NCBI GenBank assembly: GCA_964019415.1 | Contig: OZ025886.1 | Coordinates: 6,664,752-6,728,751, forward strand | Direction: 5' to 3' | Length of the DNA: 64,000 nt | Source of the DNA: Ianthella basta | Lineage: Eukaryota; Porifera; Demospongiae; Verongiida; Ianthellidae | Shown: piece by piece, positions 8,184 to 45,574 of the stretch | Layout of the letters: each line of letters begins with the position of its first letter | Numbering within the stretch: the first letter of the stretch is position 1 | The notes under the pieces: model-generated | Databases searched by the model: none | Told to the model about the DNA's origin: nothing | Seen by the model: only the letters and a program-made list of their open reading frames with translations | Made by a program: the position numbers and the translations under genes

Positions 8184-11124
8184 AGATTTGGAAAAATATG
8201 AAAAAGTAAGATTAGGCAAGATTTGGCAAGATATTGCATGGTAAGATTTGGCAAGATTCGGCAAGATTTGGCAAGATATGCCAAGGTAAGATTTGGCAAG
8301 ATTTGGCAAGATATGACAAGGTAATATTTGGCAAGATTTGACAAGATATGACAAGATAAGATTTGGCAAGATTTGGCAAGATATGAAGGTAAGATTAAGC
8401 AAGATTTGGTAAGATATGACAAGGTAAGAATTGGAAAGATTTGGCAAGATATGACAAGGTAAGATTTGGCAAAATTTGGCCAGATATGACAAGGTAAGAT
8501 TAAGAAAGATTTAGCAAGATATGAAAAAGTAAGATTAGGCAAGATTTGGCAAGATATGACAGGGTAAGATTTGGCAAGATTTGGCAAGATATGACAAGGT
8601 AAGATTTGGCAAGATTTGGCAAGATATGACAAGGTAAGATTAGGCAAGATTTGGCAAGATATGACAAGGTAAGATTTGGTAAGAAATGACAAGGTAAGAT
8701 TACGCAAGATTTGGCAAGATATGACAAGGTAAGATTTGGCAAGATTTGGCAAGATATGACAAGGTAAGATTAGTCAAGATTTGGCAAGATATGAAAAAGT
8801 AAGAATAGGCAAGATTTGGCAAGATATGACAACTTAAAGGTAAGGCTTGGCAAAATTTGGCAAGATATGACAAGGTAAGATCAGGCAAGATTTGGCAAGA
8901 TATGACAAGGTAAGATTAGGCAAGATTAGGCAATATTTGACAAGGTAAGATTTGGCAAGATTTGGCAAGATATGACAAGGTAAGATTCAGCAAGATTTGG
9001 CAAGATATGCCAAGGTAAGATTTGGCAAGATTAGGCAAGATATGACAAGGTAAGATTAGGCAAGATTTGGTAAGATATGCCAAGGTAAGATTTGGCAAGA
9101 TTTGGCAAGATATGACAAGGTAAGATTTGGCAAGATTTGGCAAGATATGACAAGATTAGATTTGGCAAGATTTGGCAAGATATGACAAGGTAAGATTAAG
9201 CAAGATTTGGTAAGATATGACAAGGTAAGATTAGGCAAGATTTGGCAAGATATGACAAGGTAAGATTTGGCAAGATTTGGCAAGATATGACAAGGTAAGA
9301 TTAAGCAAGATTTGGCAAGATATGAAAAAGTAAGATTAGGCAAGATTTGGCAAGATATTACATGATAAGATTTGGCAAGATTTGGCAAGATTAGGCAAGA
9401 TATGACAAGGTAAGATTTGGCAAGATTTGGCAAGATATGACAAGGTAAGATTTGGCAAGATTTGGCAAGATATGACAAGGTAATATTTGGCAAGATTTGG
9501 CAAGATATGTCAAGGTAAGATTAAGCAAGATTAGGTAAGATATGACAAGGTAGGTTTAGGCAAGATTTGGTAAGGTATGAAGGTAAGATTTGGCAAGAGT
9601 AGGCAAGATATGACAAGGTAAGATTTGGCAAGATTAAGCAAGATTTGGCGAGATATGACAAAGTAAGATTTGGTAAGATTTGGCAAGATATGACAAGGTA
9701 AGATTAAGCAAGATTTGGCAAGATATGAAAAAGTAAGATTAGGCAAGATTTGGCAAGATTGATAAGTTAAAGGTAAGACTTGGCAAGATTTGGCAAGATA
9801 TGACAAGGTAAGATTTGGCAAGATTTGGCAAGATATGACAAGGTAATATTTGGTAAGATTTGGCAATATTTGACAAGGTAAGATTTGGCAAGATTTGGCA
9901 AGATATGACAAGGTAAGATTCAGCAAGATTTGGTAAGATATGCCAAGGTAAGATTTGGCAAGATTTGGCAAGATATGACAAGGTAAGATTTGGCAAGATT
10001 TGGCAAGATATGACAAGATTAGATTTGGCAAGATTTGGCAAGATATGACAAGGTAATATTTGGTAAGATTTGGCAATATTTGACAAGGTAAGATTTGGCA
10101 AGATTAGGCAAGATATGACAAGGTAAGATTAGGCAAGATTTGGTAAGATATGCCAAGGTAAGATTTGGCAAGATTTGGCAAGATATGACAAGGTAAGATT
10201 TGGCAAGATTTGGCAAGATATGACAAGATTAGATTTGGCAAGATTTGGCAAGATATGACAAGGTAAGATTAAGCAAGATTTGGTAAGATATGACAAGGTA
10301 AGATTAGGCAAGATTTGGCAAGATATGACAAGGTAAGATTTGGCAAGATTTGGCAAGATATGACAAGGTAAGATTAAGCAAGATTTGGCAAGATATGAAA
10401 AAGTAAGATTAGGCAAGATTTGGCAAGATATTACATGATAAGATTTGGCAAGATTTGGCAAGATTAGGCAAGATATGACAAGGTAAGATTAGGCAAGATT
10501 TGGCAAGATATGACAAGGTAAGATTTGGCAAGATTTGGCAAGATATGACAAGGTAATATTTGGCAAGATTTGGCAAGATATGTCAAGGTAAGATTAAGCA
10601 AGATTAGGTAAGATATGACAAGGTAGGTTTAGGCAAGATTTGGTAAGATATGAAGGTAAGATTTGGCAAGAGTAGGCAAGATATGACAAGGTAAGATTTG
10701 GCAAGATTAAGCAAGATTTGGCGAGATATGACAAAGTAAGATTTGGTAAGATTTGGCAAGATATGACAAGGTAAGATTAAGCAAGATTTGGCAAGATATG
10801 AAAAAGTAAGATTAGGCAAGATTTGGCAAGATTGATAAGTTAAAGGTAAGACTTGGCAAGATTTGGCAAGATATGACAAGGTAAGATTTGGCAAGATTAG
10901 GCAAGATATGACAAGGTAATATTTGGTAAGATTTGGCAAGATATGAAGGAAAGATTAAAAGCAAGATTTGGTAAGATATGACAAGGTAAGATTTGGCAAG
11001 ATTTGGCAAGATATGACAAGGTAAGATTAAGCAAGATTTGGCAAGAAATGAAAAAGTAAGATTAGGCAAGATTTGGCAAAGTATGACATGGTAAGATTTG
11101 GCAAGATTTGGTAAGATATGACAA
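8112..11124 (-). repeat. Satellite C, block 1 (35-bp tandem repeat)
   Basis: The 35-bp unit, read on the minus strand, is two copies of TCTTGCCAAA followed by TCTTACCTTGTCATA. Common variants replace AA by TA (TCTTGCCTAA) or give TCTTGCTTAA and TCTTTTTCATA-like ends. The first 60 bp or so are inverted satellite-A decamers before the true 35-bp rhythm starts. The plus strand is purine-rich (about ten G to three C per unit). No stop codon occurs in any minus frame of the consensus, so long minus-strand frames with a 35-residue periodicity arise automatically. No host gene is visible. Confidence 0.94.
9019..10908. repeat. Segmental tandem duplication, period about 1073 bp
   Basis: The stretch 9019-9835 reappears at 10092-10908 with the same order of variant 35-bp units. 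Shared markers are the ATGCCAAGG unit, a TTACATGATAAG unit, an ATGTCAAGG unit and a GATAAGTTAAAGG unit. Few base differences were seen. The left copies of these markers are at about 9076, 9358, 9507 and 9765. Confidence 0.75.
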
Positions 11125-11311
11125 TGAAGTGAGGGCTTCTCAGCTGGCTCAGGCATCAGAAAGGGTTGGTTCTCTAATACCAGCTTCACAACAGGGTTGA
11201 AAACCTTGCCGACGTTTCGACCAGATGCTCTGGTCTTCTTCAGGGCGAAGAAGACCAGAGCATCTGGTCGAAACGTCGGCAAGGTTTTCAACCCTGTTGT
11301 GAAGCTGGTAT
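11125..11311. mobile_element. Foldback insertion 1 with hammerhead-like core
   Basis: A 187-bp non-satellite sequence interrupts satellite C. It has about 50 bp of unique sequence (11125-11175) followed by a perfect hairpin: arms 11176-11241 and 11247-11312 (66 bp each) around the 5-base loop AGGGC. The satellite sequence TAAGATATGACAA occurs on both sides (11112-11124 and 11312-11324), which fits a 12-13-bp target-site duplication. On the minus strand, through the loop, it reads CTGAAGA, an A, GACCAG, a 5-base loop, CTGGTC, then GAAAC, resembling a hammerhead-ribozyme core. Layout matches the insertion at 43361-43567. Family is inferred as Penelope-like or retrozyme-like terminal sequence. 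It has no coding capacity. Confidence 0.7.
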
Positions 11312-11459
11312 TAAGATATGACAAGGTAAGATTTGGCAAGATTTGGCAAGATATGACAAGGTAAGATTAGGCAAAATTTGGCAAGATATGACAATGTAAG
11401 ATTTGGCAAGATTTGGCGAGATATGACAAGGTAAGATTTGGCAAGATTTGGCAAGATAT
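11312..11459 (-). repeat. Satellite C, short block between foldback and Gypsy element
   Basis: About four 35-bp units of satellite C lie between the first foldback insertion and the first LTR retrotransposon. Orientation and variants match the flanking blocks. Nothing else is seen here. Confidence 0.9.
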
Positions 11460-11553
11460 TGTTGTGAAGGCATGTCTCCCAGAGGCTCCGATCACCTGCT
11501 GTCATGTAACAATGTGTAGTGCCACTTTGTCTAGAACTTTTGACACATGCATC

Positions 11554-11560
11554 TATAAAA
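11554..11560 (+). promoter_or_regulatory. TATA-like box in 5' LTR
   Basis: TATAAAA lies 46 bp before the AATAAA signal, in the position of a U3 core promoter for the element transcript. The identical box is at 16967-16973 in the 3' LTR. Function is inferred from motif and position. Confidence 0.7.
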
Positions 11561-11599
11561 GATCACCTCCTCCCTCTGTAAGTGCTGCTGTTGTTGTTC

Positions 11600-11605
11600 A
11601 ATAAA
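11600..11605 (+). promoter_or_regulatory. Polyadenylation signal in 5' LTR
   Basis: AATAAA in the LTR; the equivalent hexamer at 17013-17018 in the 3' LTR would be the one used to end the element RNA. Function is inferred from the motif and from its place downstream of the TATA box. Confidence 0.65.
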
Positions 11606-11714
11606 GCTCCCTGATTCACGTTACCAGTGTCCGTTCGCGTAGTGCCTGTCCCTTACCCTGTCCTCGCTGTCTGGACTTGTCCCATGTACCCCGTGCCCAC
11701 GACAACGGTACAAT

Positions 11715-11731
11715 TGGTGTCAGAAGTGGGA
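11715..11731 (+). other. Primer-binding site of Gypsy element 1
   Basis: TGGTGTCAGAAGTGGGA starts two bases after the 5' LTR. TGG is complementary to the CCA end of a tRNA, as expected for minus-strand priming. I do not assign the tRNA species by eye. Confidence 0.8.
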
Positions 11732-11736
11732 TCTAG

Positions 11737-13008: not shown

Positions 13009-16000
13009 CCGGGCTTGCGGGGCAAAGCTCGGCTGGGACATCTACAGCCCCCATAGTAAATGAATTTGACATCTTCAAGACGGGATCTATTAACAGCGGA
13101 GGAGACAGCCTGACAGTTCCGGGAACCATCAATGGGAGACCCTGTGAGTTGACTGTTGATACTGGTAGTAACATCTCTATTGTCAGACCTGACATACTCA
13201 GAGGAATTAACCATAACCTGATACATCCTGTTAGCAGCTGTCTCAGAACCGTAACTGGAGAAAGAGCCCCTATCCATGGAAAGGGACTGTTACACCTTGG
13301 CATCGGATCCCTTGTAGTCCAGCAGGAGCTCTGGGTTGCAGACATACATGACGAGTGTATCCTTGGACTTGACTTCCTGCAGTCAAATGGATGTCAGGTA
13401 AACCTTCGAGACCAAGCCCTGGTCATTGGTGATGAGGAGTTTCCCTTGAGGAAGCCATCAACCAGTCCACGACCAAACTGCTGCAGGGTTGTGTTGACAA
13501 AGAAAGTTTGTTTGGCCCCACTGGCAGAGGCAATTGTCCCTGTGGAAGTAGACCCAGTCCACACCGACTACAGAGTGGGGCTCCTGGAGCAGACCCAGCC
13601 ATCACCCTTTGGGAGCCTACTGGTGGGGAGGACACTTGTTGACCTGGAAAAAGACAGGGTCCCTTTGAGAGTAATGAACCTCTCCCATCAGCCACTAACT
13701 CTCAAGAAGGGGACCGAGGTGGCACATTGCAATCTGGTCAGTGCCATTATTGTTCCAGATGAGGCCATTAGCTGTGAAGAACCTATGGAGAATGTTCGGA
13801 GAACCAGATCAGTGGAAATCTTACCCACCCACCTGAGGGACCTGTATAACCGCAGTATCATAGGGCTGGAAGAAGCAAAGCACCCAGAAGTGCACCAGCT
13901 CTTATGTTGTTATTCCGATGTCTTTTCCACAGGTCCAGAAGATATTGGGTGTACTGACCTGGTTAAGCACCACATCAATACTGGCCAAGCCGCACCGGTG
14001 CGCCAACCACCCAGACGACTTCCCCTAGCGAAGAGAGAAGAAGCAGAGAAAGCTGTCCGAGAGATGAAAGAGCGAGATGTAATTGAGCCATCCGCAAGTC
14101 CCTGGTCATCACCTATTGTGCTCGTACAAAAGAAAGATGGAGGTATGAGGTTTTGTGTTGATTACCGCAAGTTGAATGATGTTACACACAAGGACTCCTA
14201 TCCATTGCCACGAATAGATGACACTCTCGAGGCCTTATCAGGAGCAAAGTGGTTTTCTGCACTTGATCTCAAGAGCGGTTATTGGCAAGTTCAACTGGAT
14301 GACAACTCCAAAGAAAAAACTGCCTTTTCAACTGGGAGTGGGCTATGGCAGTTCAAGGTTATGCCGTTTGGACTTTGCAATGCCCCGGCCACCTTTGAAC
14401 GGTTGATGGAACAGGTTCTAGTTGGGCTACCCACATCCATAGCCCTCGTTTACCTGGATGACATCCTTGTACCTGGACGTACCTTTTCCCAGGAGCTTGC
14501 CAACCTGAGACAAGTGTTTGAACGGCTGAGGGAGGCTAAACTGAAGTTGTCACCAAAGAAGTGCACTCTTTTCCAGAAGGAAGTGAACTACTTGGGTCAT
14601 GTAGTCAATGAAAAGGGCATCTCCCCAGACCCCTGCAAGGTTGAGGCAGTCAAGTCCTGGCCTAAGCCTACTACGGCTACCGAAGTGAAGAGCTTCCTGG
14701 GCCTTTGCTCCTACTACCGGCGATTCATCAGTTTCTTTGCCGACATTGCACACCCCCTACATCAGAGTGCCACAGTCTCTCCTTTTGAGTGGACACAGGA
14801 AGCTGATGATGCCTTCAGCAAACTAAAGCAGATGCTGACAGAGTCCCCTATTCTTGCCTATCCGCAACTGGATGTTGAGTTTGTGCTTGACACCGATGCA
14901 AGTAGCACTGGCATCGGTGCTGTTCTTTCACAGCAGGTTAATGGACAAGAGAGGGTGGTTGCTTATTTCAGTCGCGCCTTGAAAGCACCAGAACGCCACT
15001 ATTGTGTGACCCGTAAAGAGCTACTGGCCATGGTGAAGGCAATCAGGCACTTTCATGCTTACCTGTATGGTAGGAAGTTTCGGCTTCGCACTGATCATTC
15101 AGCTCTTCGTTGGTTGTTGAACTTCCGGCACCCAGAGGGCCAGACTGCCAGATGGATTGAGAGTCTCCAGCAGTATGATTTCTCAGTGGAGCACAGGCCC
15201 GGTGTTCAACACACCAATGCAGATGCACTCTCAAGACGGCCGTGCCTGAGAGATACTTGTAAGCACTGTGAACGATTGGAGTCACGAGAGTGGGGGAACA
15301 AGCCTCATGACCATATAACTGGTCAAGATGTACCACAGGTAGCCACGCTTGCCTTGAGTGGACCAGAACCCACTGGAGGCAGGTCTTGGGAGAATCTGAG
15401 AGAAGCCCAGCTGTGTGATCCAGAGATCAAGCCAGTGTTAGAATGGATGGAGAGAAGTAAGGACAAGCCTTCATGGGAGGAGACTGCATCCCACCCTCCA
15501 GCCACAAAAGTTTATTGTGCCCAGTGGGAGAGTTTGAAAATCTTCCATGGAGTGTTGTATCGACTCTGGGAGACACCATCTGGAGATGCCACTGTCAGGC
15601 AGCTGGTGCTCCCCAAGTCCCTGAGAAGGGAGGTTCTGCAGGAGTTGCACAATGCCCCAACTTCAGGACACTTGGGCATGGCTAAGACCCTCAGTCGTGT
15701 CAGGGAGAGATTCTATTGGCTCCAGTGTAGACGTGATGTCCAGGAGTGGTGTCGAAGCTGTGATCTGTGTGCACAGAAGAGAGGACCTCAGAGAAAACCT
15801 AAAGCCCCGCTGAGGACATACAATGTGGGATCCCCTTTGGAGCGCATAGCCATCGATGTACTGGGCCCACTACCCCCTACAGAAGCAGGCAACAAGTATA
15901 TCCTTGTCATTGCGGATTACTTCACCAAATGGGTGGAAGCCTATCCAATGGTCAATCAAGAAGCGGGGACCATAGCAGAACTACTGGTCCAGGAATTTAT

Positions 16001-16832
16001 CAGCCGGTTTGGGATGCCGTTAATAATTCACACTGACCAGGGGCGAAATTTTGAGTCAGCTTTATTTGCTGAGATGTGCAAGTTACTAGACATCCAGAAG
16101 ACCAGAACAACTCCCTACCATCCACAGTCAGATGGCATGGTTGAACGATTCAATAGGACCTTGGAAGCCTTACTTTCTAAGTTCGTTGATCACAACCAGA
16201 AGGACTGGGACGAGCACCTCCAGATTCTCCTAATGTCCTACCGTTCAGCCGTCCATGAGAGTACTGGTTGCTCTCCAGCCAAGCTGATGATGGGGAGAGA
16301 ACTGACTCTGCCAGTTGACTTGACATTTGGTAGACCTGAAGAAGAGGAGCCTCAGACAACTGTGGAGTACACCAATGCCCTGCACGAGCGATATGAGAGG
16401 GTCCATGACTTTGCCAGAAACCATCTCAAGCTGGTGACGGACAGAATGCGGCAGAGGTACGACTCGTCACCGGAGTGTCACAGGCTGCAACCAGGTGACG
16501 CAGTCTGGCTCCACAACCCACAGCGGACTAAAGGCCTTTCCCCTAAGCTTCAACGCCCATGGCAGGGCCCTTTCACCATCATTAAACGGATCAATGATGT
16601 AGTCTACAGGATCAAGCTCAGTCCAACTGCAAAGCCAAAAGTGGTTCACAGAAATAGACTGTGGAGCTATACTGGGGCTAGCCCTCCAACCTGGTTCCGG
16701 GCCCTGGAGCAAACAATTTCAGCGCCCTGCACCACTACTGATCCTCAGGCTGATTCGGTACCTAGGGACTCATCAAGCCAACCGAGAAGGAGCAGTCGGA
16801 CCAGACGCCCTCCTGATCGTTATCACAGTTGA
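12942..16832 (+). CDS. Pol polyprotein of Gypsy element 1 (PR-RT-RH-IN)
   Basis: The frame holds 1296 codons from its first ATG; as this is the -1 frame to gag, that ATG is probably not the real start. In order: aspartic protease with DTG at residues 73-75; reverse transcriptase with YLDD at 504-507 preceded by the MPFGLCNAP block; RNase H with the DTD pair at 650-652 and a TDHSALRWL block; integrase with an N-terminal HHCC zinc domain (GHLGMAKT...CRSCDLC) and catalytic D972, D1032, E1068 (D-D-35-E). A GPF-type module (WQGPFTIIKRIND) follows, then a Ser/Arg/Pro-rich tail. It would copy element RNA into DNA and insert it. No chromodomain was recognised. All catalytic residues I looked for are present, so the element appears competent on paper. 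Assignment to Ty3/Gypsy is secure. Confidence 0.95.
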   Translation: MPSAAEEAAGGGYGVPSGKRAVAGLAGQSSAGTSTAPIVNEFDIFKTGSINSGGDSLTVPGTINGRPCELTVDTGSNISIVRPDILRGINHNLIHPVSSCLRTVTGERAPIHGKGLLHLGIGSLVVQQELWVADIHDECILGLDFLQSNGCQVNLRDQALVIGDEEFPLRKPSTSPRPNCCRVVLTKKVCLAPLAEAIVPVEVDPVHTDYRVGLLEQTQPSPFGSLLVGRTLVDLEKDRVPLRVMNLSHQPLTLKKGTEVAHCNLVSAIIVPDEAISCEEPMENVRRTRSVEILPTHLRDLYNRSIIGLEEAKHPEVHQLLCCYSDVFSTGPEDIGCTDLVKHHINTGQAAPVRQPPRRLPLAKREEAEKAVREMKERDVIEPSASPWSSPIVLVQKKDGGMRFCVDYRKLNDVTHKDSYPLPRIDDTLEALSGAKWFSALDLKSGYWQVQLDDNSKEKTAFSTGSGLWQFKVMPFGLCNAPATFERLMEQVLVGLPTSIALVYLDDILVPGRTFSQELANLRQVFERLREAKLKLSPKKCTLFQKEVNYLGHVVNEKGISPDPCKVEAVKSWPKPTTATEVKSFLGLCSYYRRFISFFADIAHPLHQSATVSPFEWTQEADDAFSKLKQMLTESPILAYPQLDVEFVLDTDASSTGIGAVLSQQVNGQERVVAYFSRALKAPERHYCVTRKELLAMVKAIRHFHAYLYGRKFRLRTDHSALRWLLNFRHPEGQTARWIESLQQYDFSVEHRPGVQHTNADALSRRPCLRDTCKHCERLESREWGNKPHDHITGQDVPQVATLALSGPEPTGGRSWENLREAQLCDPEIKPVLEWMERSKDKPSWEETASHPPATKVYCAQWESLKIFHGVLYRLWETPSGDATVRQLVLPKSLRREVLQELHNAPTSGHLGMAKTLSRVRERFYWLQCRRDVQEWCRSCDLCAQKRGPQRKPKAPLRTYNVGSPLERIAIDVLGPLPPTEAGNKYILVIADYFTKWVEAYPMVNQEAGTIAELLVQEFISRFGMPLIIHTDQGRNFESALFAEMCKLLDIQKTRTTPYHPQSDGMVERFNRTLEALLSKFVDHNQKDWDEHLQILLMSYRSAVHESTGCSPAKLMMGRELTLPVDLTFGRPEEEEPQTTVEYTNALHERYERVHDFARNHLKLVTDRMRQRYDSSPECHRLQPGDAVWLHNPQRTKGLSPKLQRPWQGPFTIIKRINDVVYRIKLSPTAKPKVVHRNRLWSYTGASPPTWFRALEQTISAPCTTTDPQADSVPRDSSSQPRRSSRTRRPPDRYHS

Positions 16833-16860
16833 TTGAGGAACCAAACCCAGTGTGAAGTTA

Positions 16861-16872
16861 AGGAGGGGAGAG
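16861..16872 (+). other. Polypurine tract of Gypsy element 1
   Basis: AGGAGGGGAGAG lies directly before the 3' LTR and is all purine. It is the expected primer site for plus-strand DNA synthesis. Confidence 0.85.
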
Positions 16873-17125
16873 TGTTGTGAAGGCATGTCTCCCAGAGGCT
16901 CCGATCACCTGCTGTCATGTAACAATGTGTAGTGCCACTTTGTCTAGAACTTTTGACACATGCATCTATAAAAGATCACCTCCTCCCTCTGTAAGTGCTG
17001 CTGTTGTTGTTCAATAAAGCTCCCTGATTCACGTTACCAGTGTCCGTTCGCGTAGTGCCTGTCCCTTACCCTGTCCTCGCTGTCTGGACTTGTCCCATGT
17101 ACCCTGTGCCCACGACAACGGTACA
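16873..17125 (+). repeat. 3' LTR of Gypsy element 1
   Basis: Same length as the 5' LTR (253 bp) with one base difference seen. It is followed directly by ATAT, the duplicated target, and then by satellite C. It contains TATAAAA at 16967-16973 and AATAAA at 17013-17018. Confidence 0.96.
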
Positions 17126-17128
17126 ATA

Positions 17129-32930: not shown

Positions 32931-33522
32931 ACATGGTAAGATTTGGCAAGATTTGGCAAGATATGACAATGTAAGATTTGGCAAGATTTGGCGAGATATG
33001 ACAAGGTAAGATTTGGCAAAATTTGGCAAGATATGACAAGGTAAGATTAGTCATGATTTGGCAAGATATGAAAAAGTAAGAATAGGCAAGATTTGGCAAA
33101 ATATGACAACTTAAAGGTAAGGCTTGGCAAGATTTGGCAAGATATGACAAGGTAAGATCAGGTAAGATTTGGCAAGATATGACAAGGTAAGATTTGACAA
33201 GATTAGGCAAGATATGACAATGTAAGATTTGGGAAGATTTGGCAAGATATGACAAGGTAAGATTCGGCAAGATTTGGCAAGATATGACAAGGTAAGATTA
33301 GGCAAGATTTGGTAAGATATGCCAAGGTAAGATTAGGCAAGATTTGGCAAGATATGACAAGGTAATATTTGGCAAGATTTTGGCAAGATATGACAAGATA
33401 AGATTTGGCAAGATTTAAAAAGATATGACAAGGTAAGATTAAGCAAGATTTGGTAAGATATGACAAGGTAAGATTAGGCAAGATTTGGCAAGATATGACA
33501 TGGTAAGATTATGCAAGATTTG

Positions 33523-33720
33523 TGTAGTGTTGTTAGCATGAATATGCATGTAGTGTGCATGAGTTACATAAATATGTATGACTTAAGTGACAATGTATAT
33601 CTTTACGCATGCGTAGTTTTGTAAGAGAACACGTGTATGCATGGTGCATTTGCTGTTGTGTCATTGAAGTTGAATCTGACTGATCGTTCAGTGTCGCTTC
33701 CCCGATCGGAGGATACCACA
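33523..33720 (+). repeat. 5' LTR of Gypsy element 2
   Basis: Starts TGTAGTGTTGTTAGC and ends GGATACCACA. No difference from the 3' LTR was found on reading both. It includes several ATGCATG/GCATGC-type short palindromes. No convincing TATA box or AATAAA was recognised, so the promoter position is not stated. Confidence 0.96.
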
Positions 33721-33727
33721 TCTTTTC

Positions 33728-33744
33728 TGGCGACGAAGGTGGGA
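33728..33744 (+). other. Primer-binding site of Gypsy element 2
   Basis: TGGCGACGAAGGTGGGA starts seven bases after the 5' LTR and begins with the TGG that pairs with a tRNA CCA end. The tRNA is not assigned by eye. Confidence 0.75.
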
Positions 33745-33770
33745 TCGCGTGTCTGTAGCATCATTGGACG

Positions 33771-36700
33771 ATGGCAGCAACCCTGGGGAAGGTGGAGGAG
33801 TTCGACGCGGGCCGTGAGGAGTGGTCACAGTACGTGGAGAGGCTTGGGCACTTCTTCGTGGCGAACGGCATTGACGCGGCAGAGAAAAAAAGGTCAGTTT
33901 TGTTAGCGGTTATAGGCCCGCCCGCGTATAAGCGGCTACGCGACTTGGTGTCACCCGAGAAGCCAGGAGACAAGACCTACGAGCAGCTGGTAAAGGTGAT
34001 GACCGAGCACTTCAGCCCAGTACCCTCCGAAATTGTACAGCGATACAAGTTTCACAGCCGTTTCCGTCAGCCAGGTGAGTCCGTAGCCACGTTCGTGGCC
34101 GAATTGCGTTCTCTAGCGGAGTTCTGCAACTTCCAGCAGACTCTAGACGACATGTTGAGAGACAGGGTCGTTTGTGGAATCAATGAGGCAGCCATTCAGC
34201 GGCGTCTGTTGGCCGAGCCACGACTCACCTTGCAGAAGGCCATGGAGTTGGCCCTTGGAATGGAATCAGCCGCACAGAATTCGAAGGAGTTGCAACAGTC
34301 AGCACCCAAGAGGGAATTGGAGGGTTCCCTACCAAAGGTACACCAAGTGGCAACGGATAAGAAGCCAGAACGTGCTTGCTTCCGTTGCGGAAAGCCAGGA
34401 CACCAGGCAGCTAAGTGTAAGTTTAAGGGGGCTAAGTGTCATCATTGTGGCAAGACAGGGCATCTCCAGGCAGTCTGCCGGAGTAAGTCAAAGGGGACAT
34501 CAGGAAAAGAGTCCCGACCCCGTTCAGTTCGTCTGGTGCAGGAGGAAGAGGAAGTAGATAGTTTCCCCTTGTATGTTCTACGGGCAGCTGGGGTTGCCCC
34601 ACCCATCAGAGTGTCCCTGACAGCCGACAGTTGTCCTCTCACGATGGAGGTGGACACTGGAGCGGCAGTTTCAATTGTCTCCCAGGCAACTTTTGAGGAG
34701 TTGTGGCCGAACCGGAGTGTGGCACCTTCAACGGTTAGACTACAGTCATACTCCGGGGAGTCCATTGCAGTGGTGGGCAGCATCGACGTGACAGTCCAGT
34801 ACCAGCAACAGTCAGCAGAGCTGCCGCTATTGATCGTGCAAGGAGATGGCCCCACCTTGTTAGGCAGGAACTGGCTGACTCACATCAAATTGGACTGGCA
34901 GAGAATCCACCATCTGGCACAGGAACCATTGCAGTCTGTGCTGCAGAGTCACGAAGCTGTGTTTGAGAATGGTCTGGGCACACTCAAAGATCACGAGGTG
35001 TCCATTACAGTGGACTCACAGGCAACACCACGATTCTGCAAGTCACGACCAGTGCCATATGCCTTACGACCAAAGGTAGAAGCGGAGCTTGATCGGTTGG
35101 TCAGTGAGGGGACGTTAGAACCAGTGCAATATTCAGATTGGGCATCACCCATTGTCACCGTGGTCAAGAGCGACAAGACAAGTGTCCGTATTTGTGGGGA
35201 TTTTAAACAGACAGTCAACCCAGTCGCCAGACTGGATCGCTATCCCATCCCCAAGGTAGATGACCTGTTTGCTACATTGGCCAACGGGGTTGTATTCTCC
35301 AAACTTGATCTCAGTCATGCTTATCAACAGTTGCCCCTCACAGAGGACTCGAAGAAATTTGTTGTCATCAATACCCACAAGGGCTTGTTTCGCTTCACCA
35401 GGCTCCCCTTTGGCATTTCTTCTGCTCCAGCTATATTTCAGAGAGTGATGGAGAGCATCTTGCAGGGCATCCCGAAGGTGGTTGTCTATTTGGATGACAT
35501 CTTGGTGGCTGGAGACTCAGTGGAAGAGCATCTCCGACTGCTGGACAAAGTTCTGGATCGGTTGCAGAAAGCAGGGCTCCGGGCTCGGAAGAACAAGTGC
35601 CAGTTCATGGTCTCTGAAGTGTCATATCTAGGACACAGAATTGACAAAGACGGGCTCCACCCTTTGGACGACAAAGTGAAGGCGATAGTGGAGGCCCCAG
35701 CACCACGCAACGTCAGGGAGCTCAAGTCCTATCTTGGGATCCTAACTTACTACGGTAAGTTTTTGCCAGACCTGTCAGCTGTGCTAGCACCCTTGTACCG
35801 CTTGCTGAGGAAGCAGGTGAGTTGGCGTTGGTCCTCGGCAGAGAGAGAGGCGTTTGAGGTTTCCAAGGACCTCTTGTCGTCATCTCCACTACTTGTGCAC
35901 TTTGACCCACAACTTCCCCTCACCCTAGCTTGTGATGCTTCAGCATATGGGGTGGGGGCAGTGCTATCACATCGTTGGCCTGATGGCTCAGAGCGGCCAA
36001 TTGCCTATGCCTCACGTTCACTGTCCGACGCAGAGAGGAACTACTCGCAGTTGGAGAAGGAAGGTCTCGCCATAGTGTATGGAGTCAAGCACTTTCATAC
36101 TTACTTGTTTGGGCATTCTTTTGAGTTGGTGACAGACCACCAACCCCTGCTGGCCCTCTTGAATGAGAAGAGGCCCACATCACCTCAAGCTTCAGCCCGT
36201 GTCCGTCGCTGGTCCTTACTGCTGTCAGCCTACGAGTACACCTTGGTGTTCCGCAAGACAGAGGCTCACGGCAATGCAGATGCTCTCAGTAGGCTACCTT
36301 TGCCTGTGGCACCAGCAGAGACGCAGTCACCCCCAGAGCTGGTTTTGTTAATGGAACAATTGGAGGAGTCGCCAGTAACCGCAGAGCAGATCAGCTCATG
36401 GACCAGGCGTGATCCATCCTTGTCAGTGGTTCTCCACGCCCTCAAGCAGGGCTGGCCATCCCAGTGCGGCCCAGAGCTGGCACCATACACGAAGCGTAAG
36501 TTGGAGCTGTCTGTTCATGGTGGTTGTGTTCTCTGGGGCTCTCGGGTGGTTGTTCCACCTCAAGGTAGGAAGGCCATTTTGCAGCAGCTGCACGAAGGCC
36601 ACCCTGGCATGTCCAGGATGAAGGGCCTGGCTAGGATGTATGTATGGTGGCCAGGGCTGGACAAAGAGATTGAGGACATGGTCAGATCCTGTCAGGAATG

Positions 36701-37655
36701 TCAAGCCTGTCAACCATCACCCCCTGCTGCGCCCCTACATCCTTGGAGATGGCCAACTCGCCCCTGGGCTAGACTACATCTGGACTATGCAGGTCCAATT
36801 GACGGGAAGATGTTTCTGGTGATCATTGACGCCCACTCCAAGTGGATAGAGGTGTTCGGTGTGCAGTCAGCTTCTTCAAGCAACACAGTCGAGAAGCTGC
36901 GCACAGTCTTCTCCCAATTTGGGATCCCAGAAACCATTGTGACAGACAATGGTTCGTGTTTTGTCAGTGAAGAGTTCCAGTCCTTCTTGCGTGCTAATGG
37001 GATCAGCCTAATTACATCAGCACCCTACCATCCAGCTTCCAATGGTCTTGCCGAACGTGCTGTACAGATCCTGAAGAACGGACTGAAGAAGGTACGTAAT
37101 GGGTCCTTGAACTCAAGACTGGCAAAGATCCTGTTCAGTTACCGGTTGACACCACAAGGCACAACTGGTGAAGCTCCAGCAGAGCTGTTGCTGGGCAGAA
37201 GACCTCGTTCTAGGCTAGATCTTGCTAGACCCAATCTATTGGAGAGGGTAGAGAGCAAACAACAACAGCAGAAAGCCAGTCATGACTCGCACGCCAGGAT
37301 CCGCACGTTCCAGGTCGGTGACACCGTGTACGCCAGGAATTTCCGTCCTGGGGAGAAATGGCTGCATGGGTCAATTGTTACAGTTACTGGGCCTGTGTCA
37401 TTTGTCATTGAACTAACAAATGGAGCCAGAGTTAGACGCCATCAAGACCAACTACGCCACCGATCAGTGCATCAAGAGCTCTCAGCGGATCTGAGCACCA
37501 CAGTTGATACCTCTTATTCAACAGAGACGTTTGTCCATCATCCTGTGGCTGCCCAGACTACACCAGCGGTAGCAAGCGCACCAAGTGAGACATCTCCTCG
37601 GCGCTACCCTCGACGGTCTCACCGTGCTCCAGACCGTTACGAACCAACTGTTTGA
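33771..37655 (+). CDS. Gag-Pol polyprotein of Gypsy element 2
   Basis: One frame of 1294 codons encodes the full set. Residues 1-200 are gag with a capsid-like region (FVANGIDAAEKKRSVLLAVIG, then a Leu/Arg-rich helical part). Two zinc knuckles lie at 203-216 (CFRCGKPGHQAAKC) and 223-236 (CHHCGKTGHLQAVC). The protease has DTG at 295-297. Reverse transcriptase has YLDD at 573-576 after the LPFGISSAP block. RNase H has its first Asp at 722 in CDASAYGVGAVLS. Integrase has an HHCC domain (HPGMSRMK...CQECQAC) and catalytic D1005, D1059, E1095 (D-D-35-E). A basic Ser/Arg/Pro tail ends the protein. The ATG is the first in frame, 50 bp past the LTR. Gag and pol share one frame, so no frameshift is needed. 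Domain assignment is firm; activity is inferred from intact motifs. Confidence 0.96.
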   Translation: MAATLGKVEEFDAGREEWSQYVERLGHFFVANGIDAAEKKRSVLLAVIGPPAYKRLRDLVSPEKPGDKTYEQLVKVMTEHFSPVPSEIVQRYKFHSRFRQPGESVATFVAELRSLAEFCNFQQTLDDMLRDRVVCGINEAAIQRRLLAEPRLTLQKAMELALGMESAAQNSKELQQSAPKRELEGSLPKVHQVATDKKPERACFRCGKPGHQAAKCKFKGAKCHHCGKTGHLQAVCRSKSKGTSGKESRPRSVRLVQEEEEVDSFPLYVLRAAGVAPPIRVSLTADSCPLTMEVDTGAAVSIVSQATFEELWPNRSVAPSTVRLQSYSGESIAVVGSIDVTVQYQQQSAELPLLIVQGDGPTLLGRNWLTHIKLDWQRIHHLAQEPLQSVLQSHEAVFENGLGTLKDHEVSITVDSQATPRFCKSRPVPYALRPKVEAELDRLVSEGTLEPVQYSDWASPIVTVVKSDKTSVRICGDFKQTVNPVARLDRYPIPKVDDLFATLANGVVFSKLDLSHAYQQLPLTEDSKKFVVINTHKGLFRFTRLPFGISSAPAIFQRVMESILQGIPKVVVYLDDILVAGDSVEEHLRLLDKVLDRLQKAGLRARKNKCQFMVSEVSYLGHRIDKDGLHPLDDKVKAIVEAPAPRNVRELKSYLGILTYYGKFLPDLSAVLAPLYRLLRKQVSWRWSSAEREAFEVSKDLLSSSPLLVHFDPQLPLTLACDASAYGVGAVLSHRWPDGSERPIAYASRSLSDAERNYSQLEKEGLAIVYGVKHFHTYLFGHSFELVTDHQPLLALLNEKRPTSPQASARVRRWSLLLSAYEYTLVFRKTEAHGNADALSRLPLPVAPAETQSPPELVLLMEQLEESPVTAEQISSWTRRDPSLSVVLHALKQGWPSQCGPELAPYTKRKLELSVHGGCVLWGSRVVVPPQGRKAILQQLHEGHPGMSRMKGLARMYVWWPGLDKEIEDMVRSCQECQACQPSPPAAPLHPWRWPTRPWARLHLDYAGPIDGKMFLVIIDAHSKWIEVFGVQSASSSNTVEKLRTVFSQFGIPETIVTDNGSCFVSEEFQSFLRANGISLITSAPYHPASNGLAERAVQILKNGLKKVRNGSLNSRLAKILFSYRLTPQGTTGEAPAELLLGRRPRSRLDLARPNLLERVESKQQQQKASHDSHARIRTFQVGDTVYARNFRPGEKWLHGSIVTVTGPVSFVIELTNGARVRRHQDQLRHRSVHQELSADLSTTVDTSYSTETFVHHPVAAQTTPAVASAPSETSPRRYPRRSHRAPDRYEPTV

Positions 37656-37710
37656 CACTTGGGTCTCTGTTATAGTTAGTTATGATTGCACTTGTATTTT
37701 CCTTTTCTTT

Positions 37711-37722
37711 AGGGGGAGGAAG
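37711..37722 (+). other. Polypurine tract of Gypsy element 2
   Basis: AGGGGGAGGAAG lies directly before the 3' LTR and is all purine, the expected plus-strand primer site. A T-rich stretch (TTTTCCTTTTCTTT) precedes it, as often seen next to such tracts. Confidence 0.85.
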
Positions 37723-37920
37723 TGTAGTGTTGTTAGCATGAATATGCATGTAGTGTGCATGAGTTACATAAATATGTATGACTTAAGTGACAATGTATAT
37801 CTTTACGCATGCGTAGTTTTGTAAGAGAACACGTGTATGCATGGTGCATTTGCTGTTGTGTCATTGAAGTTGAATCTGACTGATCGTTCAGTGTCGCTTC
37901 CCCGATCGGAGGATACCACA
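37723..37920 (+). repeat. 3' LTR of Gypsy element 2
   Basis: 198 bp, apparently the same as the 5' LTR at every base. It is followed at once by the duplicated target ATTTG and satellite C. Confidence 0.96.
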
Positions 37921-40900: not shown

Positions 40901-43360
40901 CAAAGGTAAGATTTGGCAAGATTTGGCAAGATATGACAAGGTAATATTTGGCAAGATTTGGCAAGATATGACAAAATAAGATTTGGAAAGATTTGGCAAA
41001 TATGACAAGGTAAGATTAAGTAAGATTTGGTAAGATATGACAAGGTAAGATTTGGCAAGATTTGGCAAGATATGCTAAGGTAAGATTTGGCAAGATTTGG
41101 CTTGATATGAGAAGGTAAGATTAAGCAAGATTAGGCAAGATATGAAAAAGTAAGATTAGGCACGATTTGGCAAGAAATTACATGGTAAGATTTGGCAAGA
41201 TATGACAAAGTGAGATTAGGCAAGATTTGGCAAGATATGACAAGGTAAGATTAGGCAAGATTTGGCAAGATATGACAAGGTAATATTTGGTAAGATTTGA
41301 CAAGATATGACAAGGTAAGATTAAGAAAGTTTAGGCAAGATATGACAAGGTAAGTTTAGGAAAAACTTGGTAAGATATGAAGGTAAGATTTGGCAAGAGT
41401 AGAGAAGATATGACAAGGTAAGATTTGGCAAGATTTGGCAAGATTTGGCGAGATATGACAAAGTAAGATTTGGCAAGATTTGGCAAGATATGACAAGGTA
41501 AGTTTAGGCAAGATGTGGCAAGATATGACAAGGTAAAAATAAGCAAGATTTAATAAGATATGACAAGGTAATATTTGGTAAGATTTGGCAAGATATGACA
41601 AGGTAAGATTAAGCAAGATTAGGCAAGATATGACAAGGTAAGTTTAGGCAAGATTTGGTAAGATGTGAAGGTAAGATTTGGCAAGAGTAGGCAAGATATG
41701 ACAAGGTAAGATTAAGCAAGATTTGGCAAGATTTGCCGAGATATGACAAAGTAAGATTTGGCAAGATTTGGCAAGATATGACAAGGTAAGGTTAAGCAAG
41801 ATTTGGCAAGATATGAAAAAGTAAGATTAGGCAAGATTTGGCAAGATATGATAAGTTAAAGGTAAGACTTGGCAAGATTTGGCAAGTTATGACAAGGTAA
41901 GATCAGGCATGACTTGGCAATATATGAAGGTAAGATTTGGCAAGATTAGGCAAGATATGACAAGGTAAGATTTGGCAAGATTTGGCAAGATTTGGTAAGA
42001 TATGACAAGGTAAGATTAGGCAAGATTTGGCAAGATATGACAAGGTAAGATTTGACAAGATTAGGCAAGATATGACAAGGTAAGATTTGGCAAGATTTGG
42101 CAAGATATGACAAGGTAAGATACGGCAAGATTTGGCAAGATATGACAAGGTAAGATTAGGCAAGATTTGGTAAGATATTCCAAGGTAAGATTTGGCAAGA
42201 TTTGGCAAGATATGACAAGGTAATATTTGGCAAGATTTGGCAAGATATGACAAGATAAGATTTGGCAAGAATTGGCAAGATATGAGAAGGTAAGATTAAG
42301 CAAGATTTGGTAAGATATGACAAGGTAAGATTACGCAAGATTTGGCAAGATATGACATGGTAAGATTATGCAAGATTTGGCAAGATATGATAAAGTAAGA
42401 TTAGGCAAGAGTTGGCAAGATATTACATGGTAAGATTTGGCAAGATTTGGCAAGATATGACAAGATAAGATTTGGCAAGATTTGGCAAGATATGACAAGG
42501 TAAGATTAGGCAAGATTTGGCAAGATATGACATGGTAAGATTATGCAAGATTTGGCAAGATATGAAAAAGTAAGATTAGGCAAGATTTGGCAAGATATTA
42601 TAAGGTAAGATTTGGCAAGATTTTGCAAGATATGACAAGATAAGATTTGGCAAGAGTAGGCAAGATATGACAAGGTAAGATTAGGCAAGATTTGGCAAGA
42701 TATGACAAGGTAATATTTGGTAAGATTTGGCAAGATATGACAAGGTAAGATTAAGCAAGATTAGGCAAGCTATGACAAGGTAAGTTTAGGCAAAATTTGG
42801 TAAGATATTAAGGTAAGATTTGGCAAGATTTGGCAAGATATGACAAGGTAAGATTTGGCAAGATTAAGCAAGATTTGGTAAGATATGACAAGGTAAGATT
42901 AGGCAAGATTTGGCAAGATATGACAAGGTAAGATTTGACAAGATTAGGCAAGATATGACAAGGTAAGATTTGGCAAGATTTGGCAAGATATGACAAGGTA
43001 AGATACGGCAAGATTTGGCAAGATATGACAAGGTAAGATTAGGCAAGAGTTGGCAAGATATTACATGGTAAGATTTGGCAAGATTTGGCAAGATATGACA
43101 AGATAAGATTTGGCAAGATTTGGCAAGATATGACAAGGTAAGATTAGGCAAGATTTGGCAAGATATGACATGGTAAGATTATGCAAGATTTGGCAAGATA
43201 TGAAAAAGTAAGATTAGGCAAGATTTGGCAAGATATTATAAGGTAAGATTTGGCAAGATTTTGCAAGATATGACAAGATAAGATTTGGCAAGAGTAGGCA
43301 AGATATGACAAGGTAAGATTAGGCAAGATTTGGCAAGATATGACAAGGTAATATTTGGTA
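37921..43360 (-). repeat. Satellite C, block 3 (35-bp tandem repeat)
   Basis: The 35-bp array continues in the same orientation as before the element. It contains blocks also found in block 2, including the ATATTCCAAGG module seen at about 28773 and 31043 and here at about 40050 and 42177. That shows sequence exchange or copying across at least 11 kb of array. No unique sequence or gene is seen. Confidence 0.94.
39389..42877. repeat. Interleaved duplications, offsets 883 and 2127 bp
   Basis: The stretch 39389-39865 is repeated at 40272-40748 (offset 883). The longer stretch 39860-40750 is repeated at about 41987-42877 (offset 2127). Markers are the ATTACATGG unit, a GATTATGCAAG unit, an ATTATAAGG unit and a GGCAAGCTATG unit. 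The sequence between copies contains a second module, with AAAAATAAGCAAG at about 41536, that recurs near 48610. Confidence 0.78.
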
Positions 43361-45574
43361 ATGTGGTAGAGGCTCATGCTACGTTGTCTAGCAGGTTTAT
43401 GAGGCGTTGATGAGCATTCACGTAGCTAAAAAGGAAAGTTCAAGTAAAACGTTTCGACCACGAGGGTCTTCATCAGTTACAAAACTGATGAAGACCCTCG
43501 TGGTCGAAACGTTTTACTTGAACTTTCCTTTTTAGCTACGTGAATGCTCATCAACGCCTCATAAACCAATATTTGGTAAGATTTGGCAAGATATGACAAG
43601 GTAAGATTAAGCAAGATTAGGCAAGCTATGACAAGGTAAGTTTAGGCAAAATTTGGTAAGATATTAAGGTAAGATTTGGCAAGATTTGGCAAGATATGAC
43701 AAGGTAAGATTTGGCAAGATTAAGCAAGATTTATCAAGGCAAGATTTGGCAAGATATGACATGGTAAGATTATGCAAGATTTGGCAAGATATGAAAAAGT
43801 AAGATTAGGCAAGATTTGGCAAGATATTATAAGGTAAGATTTGGCAAGATTTTGCAAGATATGACAAGATAAGATTTGGCAAGAGTAGGCAAGATATGAC
43901 AAGGTAAGATTAGGCAAGATTTGGCAAGATATGACAAGGTAATATTTGGTAAGATTTGGCAAGATATGACAAGGTAAGATTAAGCAAGATTAGGCAAGCT
44001 ATGACAAGGTAAGTTTAGGCAAAATTTGGTAAGATATTAAGGTAAGATTTGGCAAGATTTGGCAAGATATGACAAGGTAAGATTTGGCAAGATTAAGCAA
44101 GATTTGGTAAGATATGACAAGGTAAGATTAGGCAAGATTTGGCAAGATATGACAAGGTAAGATTTGACAAGATTAGGCAAGATATGACAAGGTAAGATTT
44201 GGCAAGATTTGGCAAGATATGACAAGGTAAGATACGGCAAGATTTGGCAAGATATGACAAAGTAAGATTAGGCAAGAGTTGGCAAGATATTACATGGTAA
44301 GATTTGGCAAGATTTGGCAAGATATGACAAGATAAGATTTGGCAAGATTTGGCAAGATATGACAAGGTAAGATTAGGCAAGATTTGGCAAGATATGACAT
44401 GGTAAGATTATGCAAGATTTGGCAAGATATGAAAAAGTAAGATTAGGCAAGATTTGGCAAGATATTATAAGGTAAGATTTGGCAAGATTTTGCAAGATAT
44501 GACAAGATAAGATTTGGCAAGAGTAGGCAAGATATGACAAGGTAAGATTAGGCAAGATTTGGCAAGATATGACAAGGTAATATTTGGTAAGATTTGGCAA
44601 GATATGACAAGGTAAGATTAAGCAAGATTAGGCAAGCTATGACAAGGTAAGTTTAGGCAAAATTTGGTAAGATATTAAGGTAAGATTTGGCAAGATTTGG
44701 CAAGATATGACAAGGTAAGATTTGGCAAGATTAAGCAAGATTTATCAAGGCAAGATTTGGCAAGATATGACATGGTAAGATTATGCAAGATTTGGCAAGA
44801 TATGAAAAAGTAAGATTAGGCAAGATTTGGCAAGATATTATAAGGTAAGATTTGGCAAGATTTTGCAAGATATGACAAGATAAGATTTGGCAAGAGTAGG
44901 CAAGATATGACAAGGTAAGATTAGGCAAGATTTGGCAAGATATGACAAGGTAATATTTGGTAAGATTTGGCAAGATATGACAAGGTAAGATTAAGCAAGA
45001 TTAGGCAAGCTATGACAAGGTAAGTTTAGGCAAAATTTGGTAAGATATTAAGGTAAGATTTGGCAAGATTTGGCAAGATATGACAAGGTAAGATTTGGCA
45101 AGATTAAGCAAGATTTGGTAAGATATGACAAGGTAAGATTAGGCAAGATTTGGCAAGATATGACAAGGTAAGATTTGACAAGATTAGGCAAGATATGACA
45201 AGGTAAGATTTGGCAAGATTTGGCAAGATATGACAAGGTAAGATACGGCAAGATTTGGCAAGATATGACAAGGTAAGATTAGGCAAGAGTTGGCAAGATA
45301 TTACATGGTAAGATTTGGCAAGATTTGGCAAGATATGACAAGATAAGATTTGGCAAGATTTGGCAAGATATGACAAGGTAAGATTAGGCAAGATTTGGCA
45401 AGATATGACATGGTAAGATTATGCAAGATTTGGCAAGATATGAAAAAGTAAGATTAGGCAAGATTTGGCAAGATATTATAAGGTAAGATTTGGCAAGATT
45501 TTGCAAGATATGACAAGATAAGATTTGGCAAGAGTAGGCAAGATATGACAAGGTAAGATTAGGCAAGATTTGGT
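42509..45574. repeat. 1011-bp higher-order repeat, three copies, one carrying an insertion
   Basis: Copy 1 is 42509-43737 (1229 bp), copy 2 is 43738-44748 (1011 bp) and copy 3 is 44749 to about 45574 (partial). The unusual junction TTTATCAAGGCAAG ends copies 1 and 2, at about 43731 and 44742. Copy 1 is longer by 218 bp, which equals the 207-bp foldback insertion plus its 11-bp target duplication. A rare difference (ACAAAGTAAG versus ACAAGGTAAG at about 44258) separates copies. Confidence 0.88.
43361..43567. mobile_element. Foldback insertion 2 with hammerhead-like core
   Basis: A 207-bp non-satellite insertion has 33 bp of unique sequence (43361-43393) followed by a perfect hairpin: arms 43394-43478 and 43483-43567 (85 bp each) around the 4-base loop ACAA. 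The 11-bp satellite sequence AATATTTGGTA flanks it (43350-43360 and 43568-43578) and is present once at 44579-44589 in the neighbouring repeat copy. Both strands of the hairpin read CTGATGA, A, GACC, CTCGT, GGTC, GAAAC, close to a hammerhead core; on the plus strand this is 43485-43510. An inverted pair of terminal repeats beside a 33-34-bp unique extension is a layout known from Penelope-like elements; assignment is inference. There is no coding capacity. Confidence 0.75.

What the first reader, a model, noticed from the sequence alone, without database searches (positions are those of the whole stretch)
43350..43578. Foldback insertion dated against its own satellite: 218 bp = 207 bp insert + 11 bp target duplication
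The 1011-bp higher-order repeat has three copies. The only copy with the hairpin is 1229 bp long. The difference, 218 bp, equals the 207-bp insert plus the AATATTTGGTA duplication, and the neighbouring copy has that 11-mer once at 44579-44589. So the hairpin is a true insertion event with staggered target cleavage, not a local rearrangement. It came after, or escaped, the 1011-bp amplification.
Basis: seen in the sequence. Interest (0 to 1): 0.75.

Follow-up and report, generated by a model that had tools for sequence, protein, structure and literature searches.

The report
Palindromic Penelope-like insertion in satellite DNA
A hairpin of about 206 bases in a satellite repeat array is a real insertion, most likely two back-to-back copies of the tip of a Penelope-like retroelement with a tiny hammerhead-ribozyme motif, and a second hairpin of the same build in the same array bears on how such elements insert.

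Summary
Cutting 218 bp from the 1229-bp copy leaves 1011 bp that differ from the neighbour at 1 of 1011 positions, no indel. The duplication is 11 or 12 bp (insert 207 or 206 bp). The empty site occurs exactly, as a 72-mer, at 14 other places in the window.

The insert has no terminal inverted repeats. It is two head-to-head copies of one segment (85-nt arms, 100% complementary), one copy 32-33 nt longer. At the apex lies the minimal hammerhead motif of Penelope-like elements (PLEs): a model built from two outside PLEs ranks the four foldback arms first (the fourth only at E 0.05). A second foldback of the same anatomy lies at 11125-11312.

In a lizard PLE, the enzyme cuts and extends both DNA strands and starts copying inside its RNA at two sites, with a 30-40-bp tail between (PMC11167929). 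The long ends of both foldbacks fall 86-87 nt past the hammerhead cut site; the lizard site is at 82-89. The short ends fit in foldback 1 only.

PLE origin is well supported. Two-ended priming is inferred; self-priming remains a live rival. Inverted pLTRs are known in PLEs; this ORF-less minimal form is a new variant.

The parts
43350..43361 (.). Left copy of the target duplication, AATATTTGGTAA (12 bp; 11 if the last A is given to the insert)
   Evidence: empty 72-mer found exactly at 14 other places
43362..43567 (.). Foldback 1: the 206-bp insert (207 bp if it starts at 43361)
   Evidence: 1 of 1011 mismatches to the neighbouring repeat once 218 bp are removed
43362..43393 (-). Unpaired extension of the left unit, 32-33 nt; sits where the PLE 'tail' sits
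   Evidence: palindrome limits; published tail 30-40 bp (PMC11167929) and 31 bp (PMC3846280)
43394..43478 (-). Left arm; element sense is the minus strand, from the apex outwards
   Evidence: 100% complementary to 43483-43567
43443..43480 (-). Minimal hammerhead motif of the left unit: stem I GUAA/UUAC, CUGAUGA, stem II GACC/GGUC, GAAACGU-U
   Evidence: model R1, 30.9 bits, E 7.9e-8 (rough); stems
43479..43482 (.). Apex spacer, 4 nt (ACAA)
43483..43567 (+). Right arm; element sense is the plus strand; lacks the extension and half of stem I
   Evidence: model R1 26.0 bits at 43481-43518, E 4.1e-6; 2 stem I pairs instead of 4
43568..43579 (.). Right copy of the target duplication
42509..43737 (.). 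The 1011-bp repeat copy that holds the insert (1229 bp)
43738..44748 (.). Neighbouring empty copy, 1011 bp
44749..45574 (.). Second, partial empty copy; its last base already differs
11112..11124 (.). Left copy of the target duplication of foldback 2, TAAGATATGACAA (11-13 bp, ends ambiguous)
11125..11312 (.). Foldback 2: second insert of the same anatomy (187-189 bp depending on the duplication)
11125..11174 (-). Unpaired extension of the left unit of foldback 2, about 50 nt
11175..11241 (-). Left arm of foldback 2 (67 nt)
   Evidence: 100% complementary to 11247-11313, 5-nt spacer
11206..11247 (-). Minimal hammerhead motif of foldback 2: stem I GCC/GGC, CUGAAGA, GAAACGU-C
   Evidence: model R1, 29.1 bits, E 3.3e-7 (rough)
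11247..11313 (+). Right arm of foldback 2; its last base or two overlap the duplication; begins inside the motif
   Evidence: model R1 only 14.3 bits at 11244-11282, E 0.051
11312..11324 (.). Right copy of the target duplication of foldback 2

Best explanation
[quoted passage not shown] A PLE protein cut the satellite with a staggered double cut. The 3' end on each side then primed copying of the element's RNA, starting inside the RNA at one of two neighbouring sites about 33 nt apart. Both cDNAs ran towards the RNA 5' side and stopped close to the 5' border of the hammerhead motif, where they were joined head to head. The outcome is a palindrome whose outer ends are two copying-start sites, one longer by the 'tail', flanked by an 11-12-bp duplication. 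Shown here: the insertion, the duplication, the palindrome, the one-sided extension and the hammerhead motif at the apex, twice in one window. Inferred: that PLE RNA was the template (about 0.9), that both DNA ends primed copying (about 0.55), and why copying stopped where it did (not explained).
For: Insertion. PLE identity: a covariance model built only from the published lizard PLE (PAc) and a tandem PLE in contig LJHE01000041 ranks the four foldback arms 1-4 of 9 hits in 64 kb (30.9, 29.1, 26.0, 14.3 bits; E-values 7.9e-8, 3.3e-7, 4.1e-6, 0.051, all rough); the fifth scores 8.9. Four aligned motifs pair in 30 of 30 cells and 4 of 8 pairs change on both sides, against at most 43.3% paired when the partner columns are slid. 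The motif with both stems appeared in 0 of 30000 shuffles of each unit; the core without the stems appeared 9 times and once. The contig that shares the motif encodes a reverse transcriptase (29.2 bits, just under Pfam's 29.6) joined to a GIY-YIG endonuclease (28.2 bits, above 22.6). Minimal hammerheads lacking helix III are described in PLE pseudo-LTRs (passages of PMC7761336 and PMC6155905). Mechanism: PAc cleaves and extends both strands and starts copying internally, most often 111-118 nt into its ORF, with a 30-40-nt tail between two start sites (PMC11167929). Counted from the base aligned to the PAc start codon, foldback 1 ends at 77 and 109-110, foldback 2 at 61-63 and 113. Counted from the hammerhead cut site, the long ends lie at 86-87 and 86, PAc's main site at 82-89. 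PLE inserts with an inverted pLTR, one 31-bp tail and 8-10-bp duplications are published, some without duplication (PMC3846280). Both inserts span the hammerhead cut site, which fits the report that unprocessed RNA is the main template.
Against: No full PLE of this family was found, and no genome is held for the window, so the start sites could not be checked on other copies. The long ends fit self-priming just as well; only the short ends discriminate, and foldback 2 has an extension of about 50 nt, outside the published 30-40 (its short end is 34-36 nt past the cut site, foldback 1's 54). The A+C-rich signature before the ends is seen in foldback 1 (both ends among the top 12 of 111 positions) but not in foldback 2 (ranks 92 and 29 of 111), and the two ends of a unit resemble each other only weakly (101 of 2254 pairs as good in foldback 1, 1156 of 2254 in foldback 2). 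Rfam gives no hammerhead hit even at E 10; the tandem-PLE motif does get a weak one (HH9, 16.7 bits, E 0.14, cut-off 52), which the foldbacks do not. The single unit does not fold alone into the hammerhead (z -0.52). The contig was found with a pattern drawn from the foldbacks, so the model is not fully independent of them; PAc is. Four bacterial stretches picked by the same pattern score 12.8-19.9 bits with the model, so the fourth arm (14.3) is no evidence by itself.
Confidence: 0.6

Rival explanations
1. Self-priming: one target end primed copying of PLE RNA (or an antisense template was used); the cDNA 3' end folded back on itself and copied itself to give the second arm, which then joined the other target end.
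For: Arkhipova et al. 2013 infer self-priming from head-to-head PLE inverted repeats with palindromes at the junction (PMC3846280). Arms are 100% complementary with 4-5-nt spacers, as a snap-back would give. Long ends at a copying-start site fit this model too.
Against: The shorter arm should then end at an arbitrary place; in foldback 1 it ends 32-33 nt short, within the published tail length. Extension of both target strands has been seen in vitro for PAc. Foldback 2, about 50 nt short, does not speak against this rival.
Confidence: 0.3
2. A non-autonomous retrozyme (small hammerhead-bearing element spreading through circular RNA), not a PLE RNA, was the template and was inserted by PLE or LINE machinery.
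For: Metazoan retrozymes carry type I hammerheads, have target duplications longer than 4 bp when present, and PLEs are candidates to move them (passages of PMC7229834).
Against: The motif here lacks helix III and matches PLE motifs, whereas the retrozymes described carry canonical type I motifs in short tandem repeats. No tandem copy is seen here.
Confidence: 0.08
3. A foldback or MITE-type DNA transposon with long terminal inverted repeats.
For: Long perfect inverted arms and a target duplication.
Against: The outer ends are not inverted repeats: 4 or 8 of 20 positions match in foldback 1 and 5 of 20 in foldback 2. The two foldbacks share an RNA motif at the apex, not at the ends.
Confidence: 0.02

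Closest known systems
Penelope-like elements with an inverted pseudo-LTR (Adineta vaga Pen2a_Av, Pen2_Av; PMC3846280)
   Same: Head-to-head inverted pLTR segments, an optional 31-bp tail on one of them, short target duplications (9 and 10 bp for these two, 8 bp in a third case; some copies have none)
   Different: Here no ORF and no full pLTR remain: only about 122 + 85 nt head to head, with an 11-12-bp duplication
PAc (Poseidon of Anolis carolinensis; PMC11167929)
   Same: Minimal hammerhead with CUGANGA and GAAACGU core; main copying-start site 82-89 nt past the cut site against 86-87 and 86 here; cutting and extension of both strands
   Different: A full element studied in vitro; foldback products joining both extended strands are not described in the text I saw (parts 1-3 of 4, and a term search)
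Metazoan non-LTR retrozymes (PMC7229834, passages only)
   Same: Type I hammerhead, small size, spread through RNA
   Different: Canonical hammerheads in tandem repeats; no head-to-head palindrome in the passages seen

Membership tests
Penelope-like element | Reverse transcriptase plus GIY-YIG endonuclease in the element | not testable with these tools
   The inserts are too short to encode them; no genome is held for the window, so no parent copy could be looked for
Penelope-like element | Minimal hammerhead motif lacking helix III | tested here: met
   Model R1 from PAc and a tandem PLE: the 4 arms rank 1-4 of 9 hits, the fourth weakly; 30 of 30 cells paired in four sequences. Cleavage itself not tested
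Penelope-like element | Inverted pLTR pair, one copy with a 30-40-bp tail | tested here: inconclusive
   Foldback 1: 32-33 nt, met. Foldback 2: about 50 nt, outside the range
Penelope-like element | Outer end at the internal copying-start site | tested here: inconclusive
   Long ends 86-87 and 86 nt past the cut site, PAc 82-89; no other copy of these families to confirm it
Penelope-like element | Short target duplication of variable length | tested here: met
   11-12 bp and 11-13 bp
Foldback / MITE DNA transposon | Terminal inverted repeats at the outer ends | tested here: not met
   4 or 8 of 20 and 5 of 20 positions
Rfam hammerhead families | Score above the gathering threshold | tested here: not met
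   No hit in the window, no hammerhead at E 10 in either foldback; the tandem-PLE motif also stays below threshold (16.7 against 52 bits)
Retrozyme | Tandem repeats with canonical type I hammerhead | tested here: not met
   Single head-to-head units with a motif lacking helix III

The most novel reading that the evidence does not exclude
PLEs insert by copying their RNA from both cut ends at once. The long-known inverted pLTRs with a one-sided tail are the footprint of that two-ended copying, and these hairpins are its smallest products: both cDNAs stop at the hammerhead and are joined there, leaving an ORF-less palindrome that marks both copying-start sites and both cut positions.
Probability: 0.45. 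Interest if true: 0.72.

Novelty: new variant of a known kind. Interest (0 to 1): 0.5.

Why it matters
How Penelope-like elements insert is unsettled: the 2013 authors favour self-priming and leave other models open (PMC3846280), and the 2024 in vitro work says the later steps are yet to be validated (PMC11167929). Minimal hairpins in a tandem satellite with exact empty copies give the cut positions and the outer ends at base resolution, to within the 1-2 bases that the duplications leave open. A genome-wide set of such hairpins would decide between two-ended priming and self-priming by one measurement: whether the short arm always ends at the same place.

Tried and rejected
Rfam hits to microRNA families are below threshold and reflect only a long perfect hairpin; rejected as identification. 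DNA transposon: rejected on the outer ends. LINE twin priming: recalled as giving adjacent, not identical, inverted segments and a poly-A tail; neither is seen. Assembly chimera: considered unlikely, because the arms stop inside the insert and the satellite continues in register on both sides.

Searches that led nowhere: the motif in viral contigs, two patterns, 0 hits each. Relatives of the tandem-PLE reverse transcriptase in viral contigs: 1 stretch matched a pattern, none confirmed. An inverted-pair pattern in viral contigs gave 6 loci; around the match only the two 10-mers are inverted, and the best motif hit in these loci, away from the match, has E 0.073. Folding the unit alone gave z -0.52 and no hammerhead. 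Signature tests at the ends were weak in foldback 1 and negative in foldback 2. Passages of PMC12910113 held nothing on the question.

Errors of mine, corrected: the empty site of foldback 2 was joined one base off; one search repeats it correctly (best match 1 mismatch at 27461; no match with up to 5 mismatches when both duplication copies are kept). One printed value ('site1 at 73') came from a wrong formula; the value used is 77. A target-word count used a word one base too long; one search replaces it.
Full report
1. Observation. The copy 42509-43737 is 1229 bp. Taking out 218 bp leaves 1011 bp that differ from 43738-44748 at one position (43032), without any indel. A MAFFT run (gap opening 3) did split the difference into several gaps, which I put down to the 35-bp tandem repeat. 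The word AATATTTGGTAA stands at both borders, so the duplication is 11 or 12 bp and the insert 207 or 206 bp. The word is common in the array (35 occurrences on the plus strand), so the proof is the register, not the word. The undivided site occurs exactly at 14 other places as a 72-mer and at 12 as an 80-mer; no place on the plus strand matches the join that keeps both copies (up to 4 mismatches).

2. Anatomy. The palindrome is 85 + 4 + 85 nt with no mismatch, and 32-33 nt of the insert lie outside it on the left. The outer ends of the insert are not inverted repeats. Read from the apex outwards, both arms are the same sequence in the same sense, and the left one runs on for 32-33 nt. In a listing of exact inverted repeats with partners within 3 kb, the two longest are this one and 11175-11313 (67-nt arms, 5-nt spacer); the third is 43 nt and lies across a change of orientation of the satellite. 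The second foldback too has an unpaired extension on one side (about 50 nt) and a satellite duplication of 11-13 bp. With the spacers counted in, the two left units are 121-122 and 122 nt long, though they differ in sequence outside the motif.

3. Motif. The left units of both apexes carry CTGANGA-AGACC-loop-GGTC-GAAACGT(T/C). With the spacer counted to the left unit, a stem I forms next to it: GUAA/UUAC in foldback 1 and GCC/GGC in foldback 2. The right arms begin closer in: foldback 1 keeps 2 stem I pairs, foldback 2 begins inside the core. This is the minimal type I hammerhead without helix III described for PLEs (passages of PMC7761336, PMC6155905 and PMC7229834). In the published lizard element the corresponding stem is CCU/AGG (sequence in PMC11167929; alignment).

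4. Outside sequence. A pattern drawn from the two motifs was run over the prokaryote genome collection: 6 stretches. Two lie in one contig labelled Epulopiscium (LJHE01000041), which carries a tandem PLE: reverse transcriptase (29.2 bits, just under Pfam's 29.6) and GIY-YIG (28.2 bits, above its 22.6 cut-off) in one ORF, seen twice 5441 bp apart (Pfam run on one of the two). I take it as DNA of the host fish in a single-cell assembly; that is inference. The other four stretches come from bacterial records; I looked only at the sequence around the match, not at genes. The contig's motif has a stem I of GCGC/GCGC next to the core and a further complementary stretch beyond, which were not part of the pattern. 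The two loci cut from this contig hold no exact inverted repeat of 14 nt or more, so a tandem PLE with this motif need not be a foldback.

5. Tests of the motif. Four sequences were aligned. I then wrote the hammerhead pairs on that alignment by hand: 30 of 30 cells paired and 4 of 8 pairs changed on both sides; slid controls paired at most 43.3%. A model built from PAc and the contig only, run without filters on 64 kb, gave 9 hits at E up to 10. Ranks 1-4 are the four arms (30.9, 29.1, 26.0 and 14.3 bits) and rank 5 scores 8.9. The four bacterial stretches picked by pattern score 12.8-19.9, so pattern matching alone does not reach the three best arms, but it does cover the fourth. The contig was itself found by the pattern, so only PAc is fully independent. 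Shuffles of each unit never gave the motif with both stems (0 of 30000 each; the bare core appeared 9 times and once). Against this, Rfam sees no hammerhead in the foldbacks. It scores the tandem-PLE motif weakly (HH9, 16.7 bits, E 0.14, cut-off 52), so these models are poor at such motifs but not blind to them. The single unit does not fold into the hammerhead on its own.

6. Mechanism. Frangieh et al. 2024 (PMC11167929; parts 1-3 of 4 read) show that the PAc protein cuts and extends both target strands, starts copying inside the RNA, most often 111-118 nt into the ORF, and that the 30-40-nt tail is the stretch between two start sites. If both cut ends prime on the same kind of RNA, the products must face each other head to head, the outer ends must be start sites, and one side may carry the tail. 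Counted from the base aligned with the PAc start codon, foldback 1 ends at 77 and 109-110 and foldback 2 at 61-63 and 113. Because the loops differ in length, the distance from the hammerhead cut site is a better scale: the long ends lie at 86-87 and 86, PAc's main site at 82-89. The short ends lie at 54 and 34-36; with a 30-40-nt tail the first fits and the second does not. The long ends support a PLE start site under either model. Only the short ends speak for two-ended priming, and only in foldback 1. Arkhipova et al. 2013 (PMC3846280, parts 1-4 of 5 read) describe inverted pLTRs with a 31-bp tail and duplications of 8-10 bp in the cases that have one, and favour self-priming on an antisense template while leaving other models open. 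The left units stop 6 and 3 nt before the hammerhead core; neither model explains this. Both inserts span the hammerhead cut site, which agrees with the report that unprocessed RNA is the main template.

7. Dating. Two neighbouring copies that differ from the holder at 1 of 1011 and 1 of 826 positions lack the insert, so it came after the amplification or missed it. The perfect arms (0 of 85 and 0 of 67 mismatches) agree with young insertions but are too short to date them.

8. Novelty. Inverted pLTRs are known. I did not find a description of ORF-less head-to-head hairpins, or of two-ended priming as their cause, in the listings of the ten paper searches or in the six papers of which I read parts or passages. 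That library lacks most subscription papers, and one relevant paper was not held. Hence: new variant of a known kind.

Noticed in passing
11460-17127: Ty3/gypsy-type LTR retrotransposon in the satellite: LTRs 254 of 255 identical, a 1298-aa open frame with protease, RT, RNase H and integrase, apparent 4-bp duplication ATAT read by eye from the flanks.
   Followed up: partly
33522-37920: Second LTR retrotransposon, LTRs 199 of 199 identical, single 1298-aa open frame from zinc knuckle to integrase, apparent 5-bp duplication ATTTG read by eye from the flanks.
   Followed up: partly
8114 and around: The satellite changes orientation: reverse-complement type units before, forward type after, with exact inverted matches of up to 43 nt across the switch.
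   Followed up: no
1436-4271: A different 21-bp tandem repeat (GTCCAGTGCATCCTGTAGGGG type) inside the satellite.
   Followed up: no
L004, contig LJHE01000041: A bacterial single-cell record holds a tandem Penelope-like element, presumably from the host animal.
   Followed up: partly
43347-43362 and 11110-11125: Both foldbacks sit in the setting GGT, 12-bp word starting and ending with AA, then (in the empty site) G; this setting occurs 1007 times on the plus strand of the window, so it says little.
   Followed up: partly
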